Assembly: GCA_017451265.1 (NCBI GenBank)
Contig: JAFSPU010000003.1
Span: forward strand, 337,399 to 401,398
Source of the DNA: Clostridiales bacterium
GTDB lineage: Bacteria; Bacillota; Clostridia; Saccharofermentanales; Saccharofermentanaceae
Reading direction: 5' to 3'
Length of the DNA stretch: 64,000 nt
The position numbers and the translations under genes are program-made. The notes below the pieces were generated by a model. The model worked only from the letters and a program-made list of their open reading frames with translations. It had not been told where the DNA came from and ran no database searches. Below are positions 48,448 through 55,415 of this stretch, piece by piece. Numbering within the stretch: the first letter of the stretch is position 1; each line of letters begins with the position of its first letter.

Positions 48448-48523
48448 CGAGGTGTAGCGCAGTTGGTAGCGTACGTGCTTTGGGAGCATGGGGTCGCAAG
48501 TTCGAGTCTTGTCACCTCGACCA
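48448..48523 (+). tRNA. tRNA-Pro (anticodon TGG)
   Basis: A complete 76-nt cloverleaf. The acceptor stem CGAGGTG pairs with CACCTCG, the discriminator is A and the CCA is encoded. The D arm is GCGC/GCGT, the anticodon stem CGTGC/GCATG has loop TTTGGGA (anticodon TGG), and the T arm is GCAAG/CTTGT with TTCGAGT. It reads proline CCA and, with wobble modification, the other CCN codons. Confidence 0.97.
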
Positions 48524-48618: not shown

Positions 48619-49773
48619 TTAGCTGCCGAGGCGGTGCTTGAAGTCGGCGTAGCCGAAGTGCGTGATCTGTTCAATGGAGCCGTCCGCCTTAAGCTTATAG
48701 ATATCAGGCAGCGGCATGCCGTTAAAGGTGTTGTTCTTGCATGTGGTGTAGATTGCCATGTCCTCGAACACCAGCAGGTCGCCCTCCTTCAGCTCGTGAT
48801 CAAAACTGTAGTCCCCTATAACATCCCCAGACAGGCATGTGGGACCGCCGAGCCTGTAACGGTACGGTTTGCCTCCCTCGCTGTCCGCGCCCCTCAAAGG
48901 CGGCGTATACGGCATCTCAATGACATCCGGCATGTGGCATGCTGCACTCGCATCAAGGATTGCGATCTTCATGTCCTGATTCTCCACCACATCCAGCACG
49001 CGCGTAAGCAGATAACCCGAATTAAGCGCCACTGCCTCACCGGGCTCCAGATAAACCTGCACGCCCCACTTCTCCTTAGCATCCGTAAGAATACGTTCAA
49101 GCCTGGCAACATCGTAATCAGCCTTGGTGATGTGATGGCCGCCGCCCATGTTGAGCCACTTCATGCGGGGAAGCACGTCGGCGAACTTCTCCTCCACCAC
49201 GCGCACCGTTACTTCAAGCGCATCCGAATTCTGCTCGCAAAGTGTATGAAAGTGCAGTCCGTCCAGAAGCTCCAGAAGCTCGGGCGTCATCTCCTTATCC
49301 AACACACTTCTCGTTACTCCCAGGCGGCTCCCGCGTGCACACGGATCGTAAATCTCATGACCTTCCTGCGTGGAGCACTCGGGGTTGATCCTAAGTCCTA
49401 CGCTCTTGCCCGCGTTCTTGGCCTTAAACCCGAATTTCGCAAGCTGATGAACCGAATTAAACACAATGTGATCCGCATACTTTAAAAGCTCGTCAAACTC
49501 ATCATCGCGGTAGGCTCCGCAGAAGACGTGCACCTCACCTTCCGGCATCTCTTCCTTGCCGAGCCTCGCCTCGTAAAGCCCGCTCGCCTCAGTGCCTGCC
49601 AGGTAACCTGACAGCAGCGGATAGAAGTCGTAATTCGAGAACGCCTTCTGCGCGAGCAGGATTTTGCAGCCAGTGCGTGACATGACTGAAGCCAAGGCCT
49701 CAGCGTTCTTTAAAAGCTGCCCCTCGTCGATAACGTAGCAGGGCGTTTTTAAGCTGTCGAAGATGCCGTTCAT
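48619..49773 (-). CDS. nspC: carboxynorspermidine/carboxyspermidine decarboxylase
   Basis: A PLP enzyme of the alanine-racemase fold, 384 residues. It decarboxylates carboxyspermidine (or carboxynorspermidine) to the polyamine. The N-terminus TPCYVID is a family mark, the PLP lysine is in ILLAQKAFSNYDF, and GLRINPECS, HFHTLCEQ, MGGGHHIT and EPGEAVAL are all present. The ATG at 49773 is preferred; a GTG at 49782 that overlaps the previous stop is possible. It is the last gene of the polyamine operon. Confidence 0.92.
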   Translation of the reverse strand: MNGIFDSLKTPCYVIDEGQLLKNAEALASVMSRTGCKILLAQKAFSNYDFYPLLSGYLAGTEASGLYEARLGKEEMPEGEVHVFCGAYRDDEFDELLKYADHIVFNSVHQLAKFGFKAKNAGKSVGLRINPECSTQEGHEIYDPCARGSRLGVTRSVLDKEMTPELLELLDGLHFHTLCEQNSDALEVTVRVVEEKFADVLPRMKWLNMGGGHHITKADYDVARLERILTDAKEKWGVQVYLEPGEAVALNSGYLLTRVLDVVENQDMKIAILDASAACHMPDVIEMPYTPPLRGADSEGGKPYRYRLGGPTCLSGDVIGDYSFDHELKEGDLLVFEDMAIYTTCKNNTFNGMPLPDIYKLKADGSIEQITHFGYADFKHRLGS

Positions 49774-49778
49774 ATTAA

Positions 49779-51038
49779 TCACTCTACCAGTACGGGAGCG
49801 AAGTTCTCGCGCCTGGGAAGTCCGTGCTTATCGAGTGCATCGAGGAACGGATCCGGATCGAATTCTTCTACCGTGTGGACGCCCTTCTCGGTCCACTTAC
49901 CTGTAAGCAGCATCAGAGCGCCGCACATTGCGGGCACGCCTGTGGTGTAGCTTATAGCCTGGCTCTCAACTTCCTTGTAGCACTCCTGGTGATCGCATAC
50001 ATTATAGATGTAGTAAGTCTTTTCCTTGCCGTCCTTCTTACCCGTGAAGATGCAGCCAATGTTGGTCTTGCCGTGTGTGCGGGGGCCGAGGCTTGCAGGA
50101 TCAGGGAGAAGCTCCTTAAGGAACTTGATGGGAACGATCTCGTGTCCTTCGAAGTTAACGGGAACCGTGGAAAGCATGCCGACATTCTCGAGACACTTCA
50201 TGTGTGTAAGATAGCTCTGTCCAAATGTCATGAAGAAGCGGATCCTCTTAACCTCGGGGATATTTACAGCAAGGGACTCGAGCTCCTCATGGTGAAGAAG
50301 GTACATGTCCTTCTGTCCGACGGAGTCGAAGTCGTACTCACGCTTGATGCTCATGGCGGGGATCTCTACCCACTTGCCGTTCTCGATGTAGCTTCCGGGA
50401 GCGGATACCTCACGCAGGTTTACTTCGGGGTTGAAGTTGGTGGCGAAGGCATAGCCGTGGTCGCCTCCGTTGCAGTCGAGGATGTCGATCGTATCGATGG
50501 TATCGAACTCATGCTTCTTGGCATAAGCGCAGTAAGCCTGAGTTACTCCGGGATCGAAGCCGCAGCCGAGAAGTGCCGTAAGTCCCGCCTTCTCGAACTT
50601 CTCCTTGTATGCCCACTGCCAGCTGTAATCAAAGTAAGCTGAGAAGCCCTGCTCCTTACATCTCTTCTCATAGATCGCACGCCACTTAGGATCGTCTGTA
50701 TCCTCGGGCTCGTAGTTAGCCGTATCCATGTAGTTAACGCCGCAGATGAGGCATGCATCCATGATCGTAAGGTCCTGATAAGGAAGCGCGATGTTCATGA
50801 CAAGATCGGGCTTGTATGAATTGATGAGCGCAACCAGCTCATCGACATTATCTGCATCAACCTGTGCCGTGGTAATTACAGTCTTCGTCTTTCCCTTAAG
50901 CGCTTCGGCGAGCGCGTCGCACTTGGACTTAGTTCTGCTCGCGATGCAAAGCTCAGTGAACACATCGTCCACCTGGCAGCACTTTCTGATGGCCACATTT
51001 GCGACACCTCCGCAACCGATTACCAATACTCTGCTCAT
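49779..51038 (-). CDS. carboxynorspermidine/carboxyspermidine dehydrogenase (Lys1-like)
   Basis: A 419-residue saccharopine-dehydrogenase-like reductase. It should condense aspartate semialdehyde with putrescine (or a related amine) and reduce the product with NADPH. The N-terminal Rossmann loop is VLVIGCGGVANVAIRKC, followed by CIASRT, NIALPYQDL, LLGCGFDPGVTQAY and CNGGDHGYAF. It overlaps nspC or lies 5 bases from it and follows speB by 16 bases. Agmatine as acceptor (carboxyaminopropylagmatine route) is an alternative. Confidence 0.9.
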   Translation of the reverse strand: MSRVLVIGCGGVANVAIRKCCQVDDVFTELCIASRTKSKCDALAEALKGKTKTVITTAQVDADNVDELVALINSYKPDLVMNIALPYQDLTIMDACLICGVNYMDTANYEPEDTDDPKWRAIYEKRCKEQGFSAYFDYSWQWAYKEKFEKAGLTALLGCGFDPGVTQAYCAYAKKHEFDTIDTIDILDCNGGDHGYAFATNFNPEVNLREVSAPGSYIENGKWVEIPAMSIKREYDFDSVGQKDMYLLHHEELESLAVNIPEVKRIRFFMTFGQSYLTHMKCLENVGMLSTVPVNFEGHEIVPIKFLKELLPDPASLGPRTHGKTNIGCIFTGKKDGKEKTYYIYNVCDHQECYKEVESQAISYTTGVPAMCGALMLLTGKWTEKGVHTVEEFDPDPFLDALDKHGLPRRENFAPVLVE

Positions 51039-51054: not shown

Positions 51055-51909
51055 TTATGTGTTGATTGAAAGGATCAGTTCTCTTAATACTTTGCAGGCA
51101 ACTGCCGTGGAGGCGCCGCTTGCATCAAGCATGGGTGCGAGCTCATTAACGTCCGCACCCACGATGTTCGTCTTGCTTACCGTAAGGATCGCATCCAGAA
51201 GCTCCGTGAAGTTTACGCCGCCAGCCTCGGGTGTACCCGTGCCGCAGAACACGGACGGATCCAGGCAGTCGAGGTCGATCGTGAAATACACGGGTGTGTT
51301 GTTCTTAGAAAGTTCCTCACACACTTCCTTAAGCCCGTCGAAATTAAACCTGTGCATGTCAGTGTGCTCTGCCGCAAACTTAAACTCATCGCGCTCACCG
51401 CTTCTTATGCAGAACTGGTGGATCTTGCCGTCACCCACAAGACCGTGGCATCTTCTTAATACACATGCGTGGCTTAACTTAACTCCGAGGTAATCATCTC
51501 TTAAGTCAGCGTGCGCATCGAAGTGAATGATCTGAAGATCAGGGTACTTCTTGAACACAGCCTTCACAGCGCCGTAAGTTACGAGGTGCTCGCCTCCGAT
51601 CATGAGGGGAAGCTTGCCGTCATTTAAGATCTTTTCCGTCTGCTCTTCGATATCATTAAGTGCCGATTCTGATGAGCCGAAGCAAAGCTCCAGATCACCG
51701 CAGTCGAACACCTTGATGTCAGTAAGATCCTTGTCCTGATAAGGACTGTAAGTCTCTATTCCGAAGCTTTCATGGCGGATGGCCGCACTACCGAATCTTG
51801 CGCCGGGACGAAAGCTCGTGGTGGAATCAAAAGGCGCACCCCAGAGCACGATCTTTGATTCGCTGTACTCGCTGTCGCAGCCGATAAACGTCTCTACATT
51901 CTTATTCAC
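51055..51909 (-). CDS. speB: agmatinase/arginase-family ureohydrolase
   Basis: A 284-residue manganese ureohydrolase. Metal ligands are present in GGEHLVTYG, HFDAHADLRD and DLDCLDPSVFCGTGTPEAGG. In this operon it most likely hydrolyses agmatine to putrescine and urea, or acts on aminopropylagmatine. It overlaps speE by 4 bases. The LRDDYLG segment and lack of an arginase-specific loop support agmatinase over arginase. Confidence 0.88.
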   Translation of the reverse strand: MNKNVETFIGCDSEYSESKIVLWGAPFDSTTSFRPGARFGSAAIRHESFGIETYSPYQDKDLTDIKVFDCGDLELCFGSSESALNDIEEQTEKILNDGKLPLMIGGEHLVTYGAVKAVFKKYPDLQIIHFDAHADLRDDYLGVKLSHACVLRRCHGLVGDGKIHQFCIRSGERDEFKFAAEHTDMHRFNFDGLKEVCEELSKNNTPVYFTIDLDCLDPSVFCGTGTPEAGGVNFTELLDAILTVSKTNIVGADVNELAPMLDASGASTAVACKVLRELILSINT

Positions 51910-52760
51910 GATTCAACCTCCATAAGCATCTTTTCGAGGTATGCGGGAAGATAGAACGAACCCACATGCAGTTTTGTTGTGTAGTACTTGGTGCTTAGGT
52001 GCAGCTTCTTCCACCTGTCCTCATCGAAGTCCTCGATGGGGTGGTACTTCTTGCTCGCAAAGCCGAACAGCCAGTAGCCCGCAGCGTAAGTCGGGATGTG
52101 TGCCTGATATACGCGGCTTATGGGGAACGTGTTTACGATCCTCTTGTGGCTTCTTTGCATAGCCTCTGCGTCATGCTTGTAGAAGGGGCTTCCCTGCTGG
52201 TTTACCATAATGCCATCGCTTCTTAAAGCGTTGTAACAGATGCCGTAGAACTCTCTTGTGAAGTAACCCTCGGAAGGACCGAACGGATCGTTGGAATCGA
52301 CAATGATGAGGTCATATTCGTCGGAACTTCTTCTTATGAAACGCAGTGCATTATCGTAGTAGATATGAACTCGGCTGTCATCGAGCTTGCAGGCGTTCTC
52401 GGGAAGATATGTGCGGCACGCTTCGATAACCTTGTCGTCCATCTCAACGAGGTCGATCCTCTTAACGCTCTCGTATCTTGTGAGCTCCTTAACGACACCG
52501 CCGTCTCCCGCGCCGATAACGAGAATATCCTGAACATTCGGATGAACGGACATGGGGATGTGCGTGATCATCTCGTCGTAGATAAACTCATCGCGCTCCG
52601 TAAGCATTACGTTGCCGTCCAATGCCAGCACCTTACCGAACTCGGGAGTATCGAAGATATCGATCTGCTGATAATCGCTCTTGCCCGAATAAAGATGTCT
52701 CGTAACACGTATGCTGTGTCTTACGTCAGGCGCATGATATTCGCTGAACCAAAGATTCAT
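51906..52760 (-). CDS. speE: spermidine synthase-family aminopropyltransferase
   Basis: A 284-residue SpeE-like protein. The SAM-derived cofactor loop is VIGAGDGGVVKELTRY, the catalytic aspartate is in IIVDSNDPFGPSEGYFT, and VNQQGSPFY and YQAHIPTYAAGYW follow as usual. It transfers an aminopropyl group from decarboxylated SAM to putrescine or agmatine. No speD is in the window, so the donor supply is unclear and its substrate in this operon is open. Confidence 0.88.
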   Translation of the reverse strand: MNLWFSEYHAPDVRHSIRVTRHLYSGKSDYQQIDIFDTPEFGKVLALDGNVMLTERDEFIYDEMITHIPMSVHPNVQDILVIGAGDGGVVKELTRYESVKRIDLVEMDDKVIEACRTYLPENACKLDDSRVHIYYDNALRFIRRSSDEYDLIIVDSNDPFGPSEGYFTREFYGICYNALRSDGIMVNQQGSPFYKHDAEAMQRSHKRIVNTFPISRVYQAHIPTYAAGYWLFGFASKKYHPIEDFDEDRWKKLHLSTKYYTTKLHVGSFYLPAYLEKMLMEVES

Positions 52761-52772
52761 CCGTTATCCTCC

Positions 52773-54227
52773 TTATACCAGAATGTTGATGTTGTTGATG
52801 TCCGGATCCTCGGGACCTGTCATGGAACAGCCCTTGGCCTTCGCGTAGCTTATGTACTCGAGTATGGCTTCAGTGATCCTCTCACCGGGAGCCAGGATCG
52901 GGATTCCGGGCGGATAACACATTACGAACTCACTGCAGACCTCTCCCGCACTGTCCTTAAGCGGAACGCTCTTCTTGTTGGAATAGAAAGCCTTCTGCGG
53001 ACTGCATACGACCTCGGGATCTATATACTCCTGCGTCATGAGGCCGTCGGGATTTTTCTTGTATCTTCTGCGGATCTCGGCAAGCGCACTAACGAGTCGC
53101 TCGAGCTCCTGCATTCTGTCACCGATCGAAAGATATGCGAGGATGTTTCCGATATCACCGAACTCGATCTGGATGTCGTACTCATCTCTTAAGATGTCGT
53201 AAACCTCGATGCCCGCAAGGCCGATATCCCTTGTGTGAACACTTAACTTGGTGGGGTCGAAGTCGAAGATGGAATCACCGTTTATCATCTCGCGTCCGTA
53301 AGCATAGTAGCCTCCGATCGCGTTGACCTCTTCCCTTGCGTACTCCGCCATCTCGATAACCTTGCGGAAGACTTCCTTTCCTCTTAATGCGAGGTTTCTT
53401 CTGCTTATGTCAAGGCTCGACATGAGAAGATAACTTCCCGATGTCGTCTGCGTAAGATTGATGATCTGTCTTACGTGTCCTTCGCTTACGTTCTCGCCGA
53501 TAAGAAGGAGGCTCGACTGAGTTAAGCTACCGCCGCTTTTGTGCATCGATACGGCAGCCATGTCGGCACCTGCACGCATGGCAGACACAGGCATGTTCTC
53601 GCCGAAATAAAAATGCGTTCCGTGCGCCTCGTCAGCAAGGCATAACATGCCCGCGTCGTGCGCCATCTTTACGATAGCTCTTATATCACTGCAGATACCG
53701 TAGTAAGTCGGGTTATTAACCAGGACCGCAACCGCATCGGGGTTCTCCTCGATCGCCTTCTTAACCTGGTCGCGGTTCATGCCGAGCGAGATACCGAGTC
53801 TTCTGTCGACATCAGGATTAACGTAGACCGGGATTGCTCCGCACAGTACCAAAGAATTGATAACGCTTCTGTGCACGTTACGCGGGAGGATGATCTTGTC
53901 GCCCTGCTTGCAGCAGGAAAGAACCATGCTCTGAACCGAGCTTGTCGTGCCGCCTACCATAAGGAACGCATGCTTCGCACCGAAAGCATCTGCAGCAAGA
54001 AGTTCCGCCTCGTGTATTACCGACACGGGATGGCAAAGGTTATCCAGAGGCTTCATGCTGTTGACGTCAACGCCGACGCACTTCTCGCCGAGAAAAGCCG
54101 TGAGCTCAGGGTTACCCTTGCCGTGCTTATGTCCCGGCACATCGAAAGGCACCACGCGCATCTCGCGGAATCTCTCGAGAGCCTCGTAGATCGGAGCCCT
54201 TGTCTGATCCAATTCTGTTCTTTCCAT
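52773..54227 (-). CDS. speA: arginine/lysine/ornithine decarboxylase
   Basis: A 484-residue fold-type I PLP decarboxylase of the short Firmicute SpeA type. PLP lysine K230 is in SMHKSGGSLTQSS, with DVPGHKHGKGNP near the N-terminus, GGTTSSVQSM for cofactor phosphate and ADEAHGTHF for the ring. Followed by speE and agmatinase, arginine is the most likely substrate (giving agmatine). The start is ATG with GAGGTGA 4 bases upstream. A terminator and a long leader lie immediately before it, so its expression is probably conditional. Confidence 0.9.
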   Translation of the reverse strand: MERTELDQTRAPIYEALERFREMRVVPFDVPGHKHGKGNPELTAFLGEKCVGVDVNSMKPLDNLCHPVSVIHEAELLAADAFGAKHAFLMVGGTTSSVQSMVLSCCKQGDKIILPRNVHRSVINSLVLCGAIPVYVNPDVDRRLGISLGMNRDQVKKAIEENPDAVAVLVNNPTYYGICSDIRAIVKMAHDAGMLCLADEAHGTHFYFGENMPVSAMRAGADMAAVSMHKSGGSLTQSSLLLIGENVSEGHVRQIINLTQTTSGSYLLMSSLDISRRNLALRGKEVFRKVIEMAEYAREEVNAIGGYYAYGREMINGDSIFDFDPTKLSVHTRDIGLAGIEVYDILRDEYDIQIEFGDIGNILAYLSIGDRMQELERLVSALAEIRRRYKKNPDGLMTQEYIDPEVVCSPQKAFYSNKKSVPLKDSAGEVCSEFVMCYPPGIPILAPGERITEAILEYISYAKAKGCSMTGPEDPDINNINILV

Positions 54228-54560
54228 AGTTCACCTCAAACAAAAACGCAAGCTGTGCAATCTCACAACTTGCGTATGGTTCAAATATATTCTGTCGGTC
54301 ATCAAATAATGATAATCCGGTATCCAGAGTCTATATAGTAATACTACTTTTACTACTCTTATTGACCATTTCACAAGTCTGCGTAAGTTACGCATTTCGG
54401 TTATAAAGTAACCAACTTATAAAACTGAGCTTTTAACTCAATCAATAGATCGGAAGAACCGATCATCGGCAGTGGACCCGGCTGTCCGTGGCCTCAACTC
54501 CTTAGGAGTGGTCCGTAAATTACTTTAGACTCTGATAAACATCGTCTATAAAACACGGGC
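54228..54560 (-). promoter_or_regulatory. structured 5' leader of the polyamine operon, riboswitch/attenuator candidate
   Basis: About 326 transcribed bases precede speA. A 9-bp long-range helix (CAGAGTCTA 54526-54534 with TAGACTCTG 54325-54333) closes a domain of about 210 bases. Inside it, on the minus strand, GGACC/GGTCC encloses two small hairpins (ACTCC/GGAGT and GGC/GCC), followed by GATCGG/CCGATC, TGAGT/GCTCA, GGTTA/TAACC and TGCGTAA/TTACGCA. A terminator lies just before the ribosome site. ACGCAGACTTGTG upstream resembles the terminator's first arm and could be an alternative partner. A 21-codon ORF (54401-54466) may encode a leader peptide. No known riboswitch class was recognised. 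Confidence 0.65.
54241..54277 (-). terminator. leader terminator upstream of speA
   Basis: On the minus strand ACGCAAGTTGTG pairs with GCACAGCTTGCGT around a short loop and is followed by TTTTTG. It ends 4 bases before the speA ribosome site (54231-54237), the place of a transcription attenuator. Confidence 0.8.
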
Positions 54561-54589
54561 ATTATACCTTGTACACCCATGTTCGTCAA
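54561..54589 (-). promoter_or_regulatory. consensus sigma-A promoter of the polyamine operon
   Basis: TTGACG (54584-54589) and TATAAT (54561-54566) on the minus strand are 17 bases apart, just after the stop codon of the HAD gene. The predicted start near 54553 gives the long speA leader. Confidence 0.85.
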
Positions 54590-54599
54590 TTAAATAAAA

Positions 54600-55415
54600 T
54601 TAAGGATTCAGAAGCTCGATTATCTTGCGCGTGACGCTCTCCTCGTTGTTCGTGCCGATCGTCTCCGTGAAGCACTCCTTGAGCTTAGGGTGCGCGTTTG
54701 CCACCGCATACGAGAAGGCTGCATGCTCCGCCATGGGAATGTCGTTAAGGTAATCCCCGAAGACCGCGGTCTCCTCAGGCGTGATGCCGAGCGCCTCCTG
54801 CAAAGTCTTCACGCCGACGCCCTTGGAAAGGCCTGCTGCATACACATCGATCCACACATATGCCGTCACCTGCACACGCAGGCGGTTCCCGTCAAACTTG
54901 CGCAAAAACGGGTAAATATTCTTCTCGATGTCATCGAAATGCAGCAGGGCAATCTTTATCACGGGCTCCGGGATATTATGCAGGTCACACGCGCGCCACG
55001 AAGGGAAGTATTTGCTCAGCTCCTGCAAGATCTTCGGTGTAACTTCCCGGCTTGAACTCACCCAGGCATCGTTTAACCCGCATGCCACAGGGAACACATC
55101 ATCAAGGCGCTCCGCCTCCTCAAGGACAGGCGCGTAGTCTTCATAAGAGATCAGCGTCTCCTTAAGGATCTTTCCGCGGTGAAATACGCGCGCCCCGTTA
55201 TCCGTTATAAAGGCCATCCTCTGCGCATACTCGCCAAAAGGTACTGCGGCGCCGTCAATGGCCCTGCCGCTTCCGGCAGCAAAAACGACACCCTGCTTCT
55301 CCATAAGCTCGAAGGCTTCCTTGAAGTTAGACGGAAGAGTGCTGTCACTTCTTAGCAGGCACCCGTCCAGATCGGTTACTATGAGTTTAACTGGCACGCA
55401 AGAGACCTCTTTCAT
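54600..55415 (-). CDS. HAD-superfamily phosphatase, Cof type
   Basis: A 271-residue Cof/YidA-like hydrolase. HAD motif I is VTDLDGCLL, motif II is near AAGSGRA, and motif IV is AVFGDYLNDIPMAE; a C2B cap domain lies between. It probably dephosphorylates sugar phosphates or nucleotides. A GTG at 55397, 8 bases after AGAGG, gives a start of MPVKLIVTDLDG and may be the true start instead of the ATG at 55415. It lies alone, upstream of the polyamine operon. Confidence 0.85.
   Translation of the reverse strand: MKEVSCVPVKLIVTDLDGCLLRSDSTLPSNFKEAFELMEKQGVVFAAGSGRAIDGAAVPFGEYAQRMAFITDNGARVFHRGKILKETLISYEDYAPVLEEAERLDDVFPVACGLNDAWVSSSREVTPKILQELSKYFPSWRACDLHNIPEPVIKIALLHFDDIEKNIYPFLRKFDGNRLRVQVTAYVWIDVYAAGLSKGVGVKTLQEALGITPEETAVFGDYLNDIPMAEHAAFSYAVANAHPKLKECFTETIGTNNEESVTRKIIELLNP

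What the first reader, a model, noticed from the sequence alone, without database searches (positions are those of the whole stretch)
54228..54589. Possible new riboswitch or attenuator controlling polyamine synthesis
A consensus promoter is followed by a leader of about 326 bases, a 9-bp long-range helix closing a domain of about 210 bases with several hairpins, and an intrinsic terminator directly before the speA ribosome site. This is how transcription-terminating riboswitches are laid out. T-box, lysine, SAM, guanidine and cobalamin consensus elements, as remembered, are not present. A polyamine, arginine, agmatine or dcSAM ligand would make sense for the operon.
Basis: partly seen in the sequence, partly recalled or inferred. 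Interest (0 to 1): 0.85.

Follow-up and report, generated by a model that had tools for sequence, protein, structure and literature searches.

The report
Polyamine-operon riboswitch, ldcC RNA family
The RNA leader in front of this bacterium's polyamine-making genes belongs to a catalogued but unexplained RNA family that proves to be larger than catalogued and is built like a metabolite-sensing off-switch, most likely for spermidine.

Summary
In detail: a near-consensus promoter, a ~327-nt leader, a 9-bp long-range helix spanning 210 nt and a strong intrinsic terminator precede a speA-like gene. It is not a new RNA family: Rfam RF02440 (SpF59 sRNA, "ldcC RNA") matches the 5' quarter (59.6 bits, cut-off 37.2). 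But RF02440 models 54 nt, and conservation continues ~140 nt further. A model of the 3' domain alone finds all 18 RF02440-positive genomes in a phylum sample of 398, plus two strong ones RF02440 missed; in a family sample it finds only 12 of 27, because one genus has a compact 3' domain. Of 132 loci, 120 have a polyamine synthesis or import gene next (speD, speA-type, carboxynorspermidine synthase, or potA); 11 of the other 12 have under 600 nt of flank. One inner strand (ACUUGUG, helix P8) complements the terminator's 5' arm: 58 of 85 arms carry CAAGY/CAGGY/CAAGG, against 7 of 82 other terminators, and the duplex co-varies. Best explanation: a transcription-terminating off-switch sensing a polyamine, most likely spermidine. 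Anatomy and pathway link are computed; binding and termination are inferred. The one accepted spermidine riboswitch is a rare SAM-I variant, so this would be a second class. I could not read the 2017 paper recalled as naming the ldcC motif.

The parts
54561..54589 (-). promoter: -35 TTGACG (54589-54584), 17-nt spacer, -10 TATAAT (54566-54561); start of transcription near 54554 (inferred)
   Evidence: 11 of 12 consensus matches; sequence
   Evidence: native against swapped pairing z 7.4 over 93 loci
54519..54524 (-). P1, 5' strand AGUAAU; partner AUUACU 54342-54337
   Evidence: native against swapped z 11.5 over 93 loci
54466..54514 (-). 5' core = full-length RF02440 match: P2 GGACC/GGUCC (54514-54510 / 54478-54474), P3 hairpin (54509-54497), P4 GGC/GCC with near-invariant loop (54493-54480), 3' flank UGCCGA
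   Evidence: 59.6 bits, cut-off 37.2, model 1-54 of 54; the P2 outer pair and one P3 pair covary above my tree-based null
54448..54464 (-). P5 hairpin GAUCGG/CCGAUC (GGCAAC/GUUGCC in many relatives)
   Evidence: all 6 pairs show changes on both sides, 74.4% of cells paired (outermost pair mostly misaligned)
54360..54447 (-). conserved 3' domain: P6 (54447-54442 / 54365-54360), P7 (54440-54437 / 54429-54426), P8 (54421-54414 / 54379-54372), P9 (54413-54409 / 54403-54399), P10 (54394-54389 / 54385-54380); not covered by RF02440
   Evidence: alignments A1, A2, pair counts, model R1 hits
54372..54379 (-). GACUUGUG, 3' strand of P8 and proposed antiterminator strand (8 pairs with 54274-54267)
54325..54359 (-). 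conserved 3' tail AGAGUAGUAAAAGU..AUUACUAUAUAGACUCUG carrying the 3' strands of P1 and of the long-range helix
54246..54275 (-). intrinsic terminator, 12-bp stem, then UUUUUGUUU; its 5' arm (54274-54267, CGCAAGUU) is the proposed partner of the P8 3' strand
   Evidence: comparison with 82 other terminators
52773..54227 (-). first gene: speA-like Orn/Lys/Arg decarboxylase of the AAT fold, 484 aa
   Evidence: Pfam OKR_DC_1 238.2 bits, cut-off 27; the best NCBIfam models are far below their cut-offs, so arginine as substrate rests on agmatinase in the operon and on pneumococcal SP_0916 (PMC7531197)
51906..52760 (-). speE, polyamine aminopropyltransferase
   Evidence: 362.5 bits, cut-off 260
51055..51909 (-). 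speB, agmatinase
   Evidence: TIGR01230 273.3 bits, cut-off 174.3
49779..51038 (-). carboxy(nor)spermidine synthase-like (CANSDH)
   Evidence: best match NF043000, 406 bits, below its curated cut-off of 800; Pfam saccharopine dehydrogenase domains
48619..49782 (-). nspC, carboxynorspermidine decarboxylase (CANSDC)
   Evidence: TIGR01047 439.9 bits, cut-off 409.05

Best explanation
The leader is a cis-acting riboswitch of the RF02440 / ldcC RNA kind that lowers transcription of the polyamine operon when the end product is abundant. An aptamer domain of ~210 nt (P1 to P10) folds as it is transcribed. When the ligand, most likely spermidine, binds, the P8 helix is held together, so its 3' strand ACUUGUG is not free; the terminator hairpin then forms and RNA polymerase stops before speA. 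Without ligand, the P8 3' strand, often together with the 3' arm of P10, pairs with the 5' arm of the terminator (antiterminator) and the operon is transcribed. Shown by computation: conserved architecture, the antiterminator complementarity and its co-variation, near-equal energies of the alternative folds at the decision point in this window, and the link to polyamine synthesis and import. Inferred: direct ligand binding, spermidine as ligand, and the sign (off).
For: RF02440 match. Conservation beyond RF02440: 45 invariant columns in 38 divergent members (17 fixed by my search pattern and 4, GACC, by my selection); 21 of the rest lie in the 3' domain. Model R1 of the 3' domain finds all 18 RF02440-positive genomes of 398 plus 2 strong and 1 weak (7 of the 18 supplied training sequences). 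Structure: 86.1% of cells paired against at most 41.8% slid; covariation score 0.198 against 0.111 shuffled and at most 0.081 slid. Switch: the P8 3' strand matches the terminator 5' arm at z 14.5, none of ten other segments above 2.1, 79 loci; CAAGY, CAGGY or CAAGG in 58 of 85 arms against 7 of 82 other terminators, and best-run scores higher, p 5e-14 (49 of 72 non-redundant); native duplexes stronger than swapped, z -7.1 over 72 loci, controls -0.1 to -1.3. Window at the decision point: consensus aptamer -81.6, antiterminator -82.1, unconstrained -83.0 kcal/mol. Context: first recognised gene SpeD 38, SpeA-type 35, PotA 25, CANSDH 22 of 132 loci (SpeD, PotABCD and nspC checked). Among 58 family genomes the RNA is in 35 of 45 with a CANSDH match at E below 1e-60 and in 0 of 13 without. 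The pneumococcal RNA F59 lies between SP0915 and SP0916, by my reading of the table on the strand of SP0916 (Mann 2012, passages); SP_0916 is an arginine decarboxylase (PMC7531197, title, start of abstract and passages).
Against: No binding or termination data. In the family sample R1 finds only 12 of 27 RF02440-positive genomes; the 15 misses are all genus g269, which has a compact 3' domain without an evident terminator in the one locus read (L145). Inner helices are too conserved to covary: P8 has no two-sided change (0 of 8 pairs), P4 none, P6 one cell; my tree-based test (home-made, not R-scape) passes for only 2 of 17,391 column pairs. 26 of 111 parsed loci gave no terminator above my threshold, 2 of them for lack of sequence. 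The best contiguous match anywhere in the aptamer fell in the P8 3' strand or the variable segment before it in 55 of 79 loci, elsewhere in 24. In potABCD loci contiguous complementarity is near control level (8.9 against 8.5) and only the two-part duplex co-varies (z -3.5); in the CANSDH group (8 close relatives) native is not better than swapped (z +1.1). The control terminators were found with a stricter scan than the native ones. Ten family genomes with CANSDH have no RNA hit. The unconstrained fold pairs the RF02440 core differently from the consensus; energies ignore pseudoknots and ligand.
Confidence: 0.6

Rival explanations
1. Same riboswitch architecture, but the ligand is another pathway compound (putrescine, agmatine, arginine, lysine, dcSAM, norspermidine or carboxyspermidine).
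For: In the window the first gene is a decarboxylase acting on an amino acid; SpeD, the dcSAM source, is first in 38 of 132 loci.
Against: CANSDH-CANSDC two-gene operons (4 of 4 CANSDH-first loci with over 6.5 kb downstream) and potABCD (PotA first in 25 of 132 loci) point to the pathway's end product and import substrate; an off-switch on putrescine would shut off the enzymes that consume putrescine.
Confidence: 0.2
2. The leader is sensed by a protein that stabilises the terminator, as PyrR does for pyr leaders.
For: Conserved leaders with terminator and antiterminator are also used by proteins; the anatomy alone cannot tell. No regulator was sought.
Against: The long multi-helix near-invariant core resembles large aptamers more than the short protein sites I know (recall); the RNA occurs in many Bacillota families.
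Confidence: 0.13
3. It is a trans-acting small RNA, as the Rfam name SpF59_sRNA suggests.
For: Listed as sRNA F59 in pneumococcus (Rfam type 'sRNA'). No target search was made.
Against: A polyamine gene follows on the same strand in 120 of 132 loci, 11 of the other 12 having under 600 nt of flank; the terminator and co-varying antiterminator act in cis; an attenuated leader would itself be seen as a small RNA.
Confidence: 0.04
4. Leader-peptide attenuation with no RNA sensor.
For: Short ORFs exist in the leader (one search lists 11 candidate starts with at least 8 codons, many nested).
Against: What is conserved is RNA sequence and helices; variable hairpins change length freely, which would shift frames. 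Frames of relatives were not compared one by one.
Confidence: 0.02

Closest known systems
Rfam RF02440 SpF59_sRNA (ldcC RNA)
   Same: Full-length match above the gathering score; the pneumococcal F59 that gives it its name (identity taken from the name) lies in the gap before a speA-type decarboxylase gene
   Different: Rfam models 54 nt; the conserved RNA here spans ~210 nt with six further helices (P5 to P10), a long-range helix and a terminator switch. Rfam types it as an sRNA; here it looks like a cis leader. Whether the 2017 description of the ldcC motif (recalled; paper not held) already shows the larger structure is unknown to me
Spermidine riboswitch (SAM-I variant; Salvail et al. 2023, PMC10853860, passages and concluding section read)
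   Same: Controls polyamine genes; transcriptional off-switch with terminator and antiterminator; the tested example lies before an ldcC gene of Trichococcus ilyis
   Different: Different RNA: no SAM-I family match in this leader at E up to 5. That class is rare (13 representatives in their alignment); RF02440 is in 18 of 398 genomes sampled from this phylum
Transcription-terminating riboswitches in general
   Same: Promoter, conserved receptor-like domain, mutually exclusive antiterminator and terminator, ribosome site and first gene
   Different: Ligand binding not shown; the antiterminator strand is an inner strand (P8) rather than the closing P1 strand (usual arrangement recalled)
speF motif (alphaproteobacteria)
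   Same: Leader RNA of a polyamine gene, not validated as a riboswitch (review PMC11477304, passages)
   Different: No Rfam match to it in this leader; different phylum and gene

Membership tests
Rfam RF02440 (SpF59_sRNA / ldcC RNA) | covariance-model score at or above the gathering cut-off, full length | tested here: met
   59.6 bits against 37.2, model 1-54 of 54
Rfam RF02440 (SpF59_sRNA / ldcC RNA) | located upstream of a speA/ldcC-type gene, like pneumococcal F59 | tested here: met
   speA-like gene 54227-52773 follows; F59 lies in the gap before SP0916
transcription-terminating riboswitch | conserved structured receptor domain with evidence of pairing across relatives | tested here: met
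   inner helices supported by conservation more than by covariation
transcription-terminating riboswitch | mutually exclusive terminator and antiterminator linked to the receptor domain | tested here: met
   (computational only; not in the CANSDH group by the swap test, and no terminator found in 26 of 111 loci)
transcription-terminating riboswitch | direct, selective binding of a small molecule that changes termination | not testable with these tools
   needs in-line probing and single-round transcription
spermidine riboswitch (SAM-I variant) | SAM-I-like consensus | tested here: not met
   cmscan of 54200-54620 against 4227 families at E up to 5 returns RF02440 and two chance eukaryotic matches only
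T-box, lysine, SAM, guanidine and cobalamin riboswitches | match to a corresponding Rfam model | tested here: not met
trans-acting sRNA | base-pairing target and action in trans | not tested
   no target search was made; genomic placement argues for cis

The most novel reading that the evidence does not exclude
RF02440 is a fragment of a large, widespread second natural class of polyamine (spermidine) riboswitch: a ~210-nt aptamer, unlike the SAM-I variant, that turns off both polyamine synthesis and polyamine import across Bacillota and perhaps beyond (a spirochaete MAG, L080, has the core before speD-speA-speE-speB, with a diverged 3' domain), and whose inner aptamer helix itself supplies the antiterminator strand.
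Probability: 0.5. Interest if true: 0.8.

Novelty: new member of a known kind. Interest (0 to 1): 0.62.

Why it matters
Polyamines are near-universal cations whose selective sensing by RNA has been hard to prove. The 2023 paper on the SAM-I-variant spermidine riboswitch calls that class narrowly distributed and says further polyamine classes surely remain to be discovered (PMC10853860). This leader offers a concrete candidate with boundaries, a named switching strand, a ranked ligand and members in ordinary soil and gut genera (Paenibacillus, Bacillus, Acetobacterium) for testing. It would also explain why a pneumococcal 'sRNA' lies in front of SP_0916, and it suggests re-modelling an Rfam entry.

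Tried and rejected
Rejected: T-box, lysine, SAM, guanidine and cobalamin classes (no Rfam match); the SAM-I-variant spermidine riboswitch as the same RNA; Rfam matches RF02785 and RF02248 (E 1.1 and 1.7, far below their cut-offs; chance). Arginine or dcSAM as first-choice ligand was dropped once potABCD and CANSDH-CANSDC operons appeared.

Led little further: a search for ldcC RNA, ldcC motif, SpF59 and RF02440 listed two papers, judged irrelevant from titles and abstracts. mostly listed papers on the streptococcal exotoxin also called speA, on decarboxylase enzymes or on polyamine physiology. One search listed six papers for six polyamine-riboswitch phrases; only the SAM-I-variant paper has one in its title or abstract. 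A pneumococcal transcriptome paper (PMC6296669, passages) has no hit for SP_0916, speE or ldcC in its main text; supplements were not open. Two riboswitch reviews were searched by term only: neither mentions ldcC. My tree-based covariation test has little power on near-invariant helices. Plain MAFFT misaligns P3, P5 and P10, so understates them (47.0% and 29.3% of cells paired in the two pieces of P10).

Rows dropped or kept: L022 and L025 were dropped as chance pattern matches before all locus counts; L122 is a chance match too (no family) but kept in the 132. L008 and L057 are the same locus fetched twice (131 distinct of 132; SpeD then 37, arms 57 of 84). L016 and L018 do not match the exact pattern; they were added by hand and are not in the gene or terminator counts. 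Of 134 loci, 113 parsed with all landmarks, 105 entered the anchored alignment, 93 were non-redundant, 40 were picked as divergent and having GACC, and I gave 38 to the aligner, leaving out L072 and L086. Terminators: 85 of 111, 79 with the 3' landmark, 72 non-redundant. For R1 I listed 33 sequences and gave 28 to the aligner: 7 from genomes searched again and 21 of the 118 pattern loci, so their recovery is by construction. The 1e-60 and 1e-100 limits for CANSDH were chosen. Of the loci fetched later, I read by eye only L137, L143, L144, L145, L156 and L159; L167 to L169 were only scanned with R1.

Full report
What is there. On the minus strand, a near-consensus promoter (TTGACG-17-TATAAT, 54589-54561) is followed by a ~327-nt leader, a 12-bp intrinsic terminator (54275-54246) and, after a GAGGUG ribosome site, the ATG at 54227 of a 484-aa Orn/Lys/Arg decarboxylase. 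The operon continues with speE, agmatinase speB, a carboxy(nor)spermidine synthase-like gene (406 bits, below its curated cut-off of 800) and nspC, carboxynorspermidine decarboxylase.

It is in a known family, but the RNA is bigger than the family's model. Rfam finds one family in the leader at its cut-off: RF02440, SpF59_sRNA (ldcC RNA), 59.6 bits against 37.2, at 54514-54466. The pneumococcal RNA F59 is listed as 82 nt between SP0915 and SP0916, by my reading of the table's arrows on the strand of SP0916 (Mann et al. 2012, passages), and SP_0916 is an arginine decarboxylase (PMC7531197, title, start of abstract and passages). Conservation runs ~140 nt past the RF02440 core. In 38 divergent sequences 45 columns are invariant; 17 are forced by the search pattern and 4 (GACC) by my selection, and 21 of the remaining 24 lie in the 3' domain (these loci had also passed a loose landmark match).

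A covariance model of the 3' domain alone (R1, 103 positions) finds all 18 RF02440 genomes among the 398 (7 of them supplied training sequences) plus G270 and G023 (E 8.5e-15 and 8.0e-13) and a weak G067. G270 and G023 have a diverged or replaced 5' core but keep the 3' domain ahead of a speA-like reading frame (by eye). Over the 118 pattern loci, R1 matches 101 at E 0.01 or less (71 of 80, 30 of 38; 21 of the 118 were in training). The misses include contigs that end early, chance matches and diverged forms; the spirochaete locus L080 gets only E 0.66. Against a universal 3' domain: in 58 genomes of the window's family R1 finds 12 of the 27 RF02440-positive ones; the 15 missed are all genus g269, and R1 has 4 weak hits in other g269 genomes. 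The one g269 locus read (L145) has a compact 3' domain: P5, P6 and P8 landmarks kept, P10 missing.

Structure. P2, P3 and P5 show compensatory changes; the outer pair of P2 (U-A, G-C, C-G) and one pair of P3 exceed a tree-based null of my own making (93 sequences, 17,391 column pairs, 2 below E 0.05, a third at 0.067). For the given 48-pair structure, 86.1% of cells pair against at most 41.8% after sliding, and the covariation score is 0.198 against 0.111 shuffled. P4, P6 and P8 are nearly invariant and therefore rest on conservation: P8 has only one-sided changes, P6 one two-sided cell, P4 no two-sided change. P1 and the AGAGUC/GACUCU pairing are supported by native against swapped partners (z 11.5 and 7.4; control -0.3; 93 loci).

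The switch. Of 111 parsed loci, 85 have a terminator within 350 nt by my scan; of the 26 without, 2 lack downstream sequence. Among eleven aptamer segments tested, the 5' arm of these terminators is unusually complementary to one, the 3' strand of P8 (..ACUUGUGAAA): z 14.5, the ten others 2.1 or less (79 loci). The best contiguous match anywhere fell in that strand in 24 loci, in the variable segment just before it in 31 and elsewhere in 24. CAAGY, CAGGY or CAAGG occurs in 58 of 85 arms against 7 of 82 other terminators in the same loci, the latter found with a stricter scan; in the non-redundant set it is 49 of 72. Energies of duplexes between P10-3'/P8-3' and the arm are better for native than swapped partners (-10.95 against -9.38, z -7.1, 72 loci), in the speA (27), speD (19) and potA (18) groups separately (z -3.5 to -3.6), not in the CANSDH group (8 loci, z +1.1); three control segments give -0.1 to -1.3. 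In the potA group the contiguous score alone is near control (8.9 against 8.5), so there the pairing is two-part. In the window GACUUGUG (54379-54372) makes 8 pairs with CGCAAGUU (54274-54267). When RNA polymerase has made the 5' arm and most of the loop, three folds lie within 1.4 kcal/mol: consensus aptamer -81.6, antiterminator -82.1, and the unconstrained fold -83.0, which keeps P1 and P5 to P10 but pairs the RF02440 core differently. Once the 3' arm is made the terminator state wins (-99.6 against -86.5). That is the energy layout of a switch that a ligand holding the aptamer together could tip towards termination.

What it controls. Of 132 loci (131 distinct), the first recognised gene downstream is SpeD in 38, SpeA-type in 35, PotA in 25 and CANSDH in 22; of the 12 unassigned, 11 have under 600 nt of flank and 1 (L122) is a chance match. 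One of the 11, L023, has a core without a 3' domain, and the only reading frame of at least 80 aa that my scan lists after it is none of these. The reference SpeD (L014) is AdoMet decarboxylase by TIGR03331, 400.3 bits against 255.8. In L028 PotA is above its cut-off and PotB, PotC and PotD are best matches below theirs; PotA passes a cut-off in L095 and L097 and is a best match below it in L110 and L100; the other potA loci are assigned by similarity to L028. Among 58 family genomes the RNA (RF02440 or R1) is in 35 of 45 with CANSDH at E below 1e-60 and in 0 of 13 without; within the window's genus, at E below 1e-100, in 14 of 18 and 0 of 10 (Fisher p 1.5e-4 for the genus; limits chosen after seeing the data). 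One ligand fits all four contexts: the product of SpeE and of CANSDH/CANSDC and a cargo of PotABCD, spermidine (pathway knowledge). Putrescine fits import and speA but not the two-gene CANSDH-CANSDC operons, which consume it.

Expression platforms differ. In L145 no terminator is evident and a CCUU..AAGG pairing could cover the ribosome site of speD (by eye), which would be a translational version.

Known or new. The one polyamine riboswitch class I found described is the SAM-I variant (six papers listed; PMC10853860 read in passages and its concluding section), and its authors expect further classes. A search for ldcC RNA, ldcC motif, SpF59 and RF02440 found nothing on this RNA, though the library lacks most subscription and non-commercial-licence papers. 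The 2017 collection of candidate structured RNAs, which I recall as the source of the name ldcC, is not held, so how much of the larger structure it already draws is open. I therefore file the element as a member of RF02440, an orphan family as far as I could find, and rate as unproven but likely that it is a polyamine riboswitch.

Confidence by step: cis-acting terminator/antiterminator control about 0.9; direct small-molecule sensing about 0.75; a polyamine as ligand about 0.7; spermidine in particular about 0.5 to 0.6.

Noticed in passing
window 51906-52760 (speE): The operon carries spermidine synthase (SpeE) together with the alternative carboxyspermidine route, yet no AdoMet decarboxylase (PF02675) was found in the host genome (69.5% complete); where SpeE would get decarboxylated SAM is unclear.
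   Followed up: partly
L159 (G023) and L156/L167 (G270): The 3' domain is intact before a speA-like reading frame, but in L159 no RF02440 core is recognisable, and in L156 the core is diverged (P2 AGAC/GUCU, ACGGACA and UGCCGA kept). RF02440 did not report either genome.
   Followed up: partly
L145 (genus g269); L072 and L106 look alike: Compact form of the RNA before speD: P10 missing, no terminator found, and a possible ribosome-site hairpin, suggesting translational control.
   Followed up: partly
anchored alignment columns mid16 and g1 (window 54425 and 54368): Two columns covary as A-C (53 sequences) and G-U (27 of 86), a non-canonical but isosteric exchange, possibly a tertiary pair (E 0.63, not significant).
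   Followed up: no
L095 and L132, P9-P10 region: Segments of 176 and 161 nt, against 33 nt in the window, with hairpins of their own sit inside the otherwise conserved RNA of two potA loci.
   Followed up: no
L023 and L060: Core-like matches with no recognisable 3' domain; the held sequence ends 583 nt (L023) and 231 nt (L060) downstream, and the reading frame after L023 is not a recognised polyamine gene.
   Followed up: no
window 48448-48520: A tRNA gene (Rfam RF00005, 63 bits) on the plus strand lies about 100 nt beyond the end of the polyamine operon.
   Followed up: no
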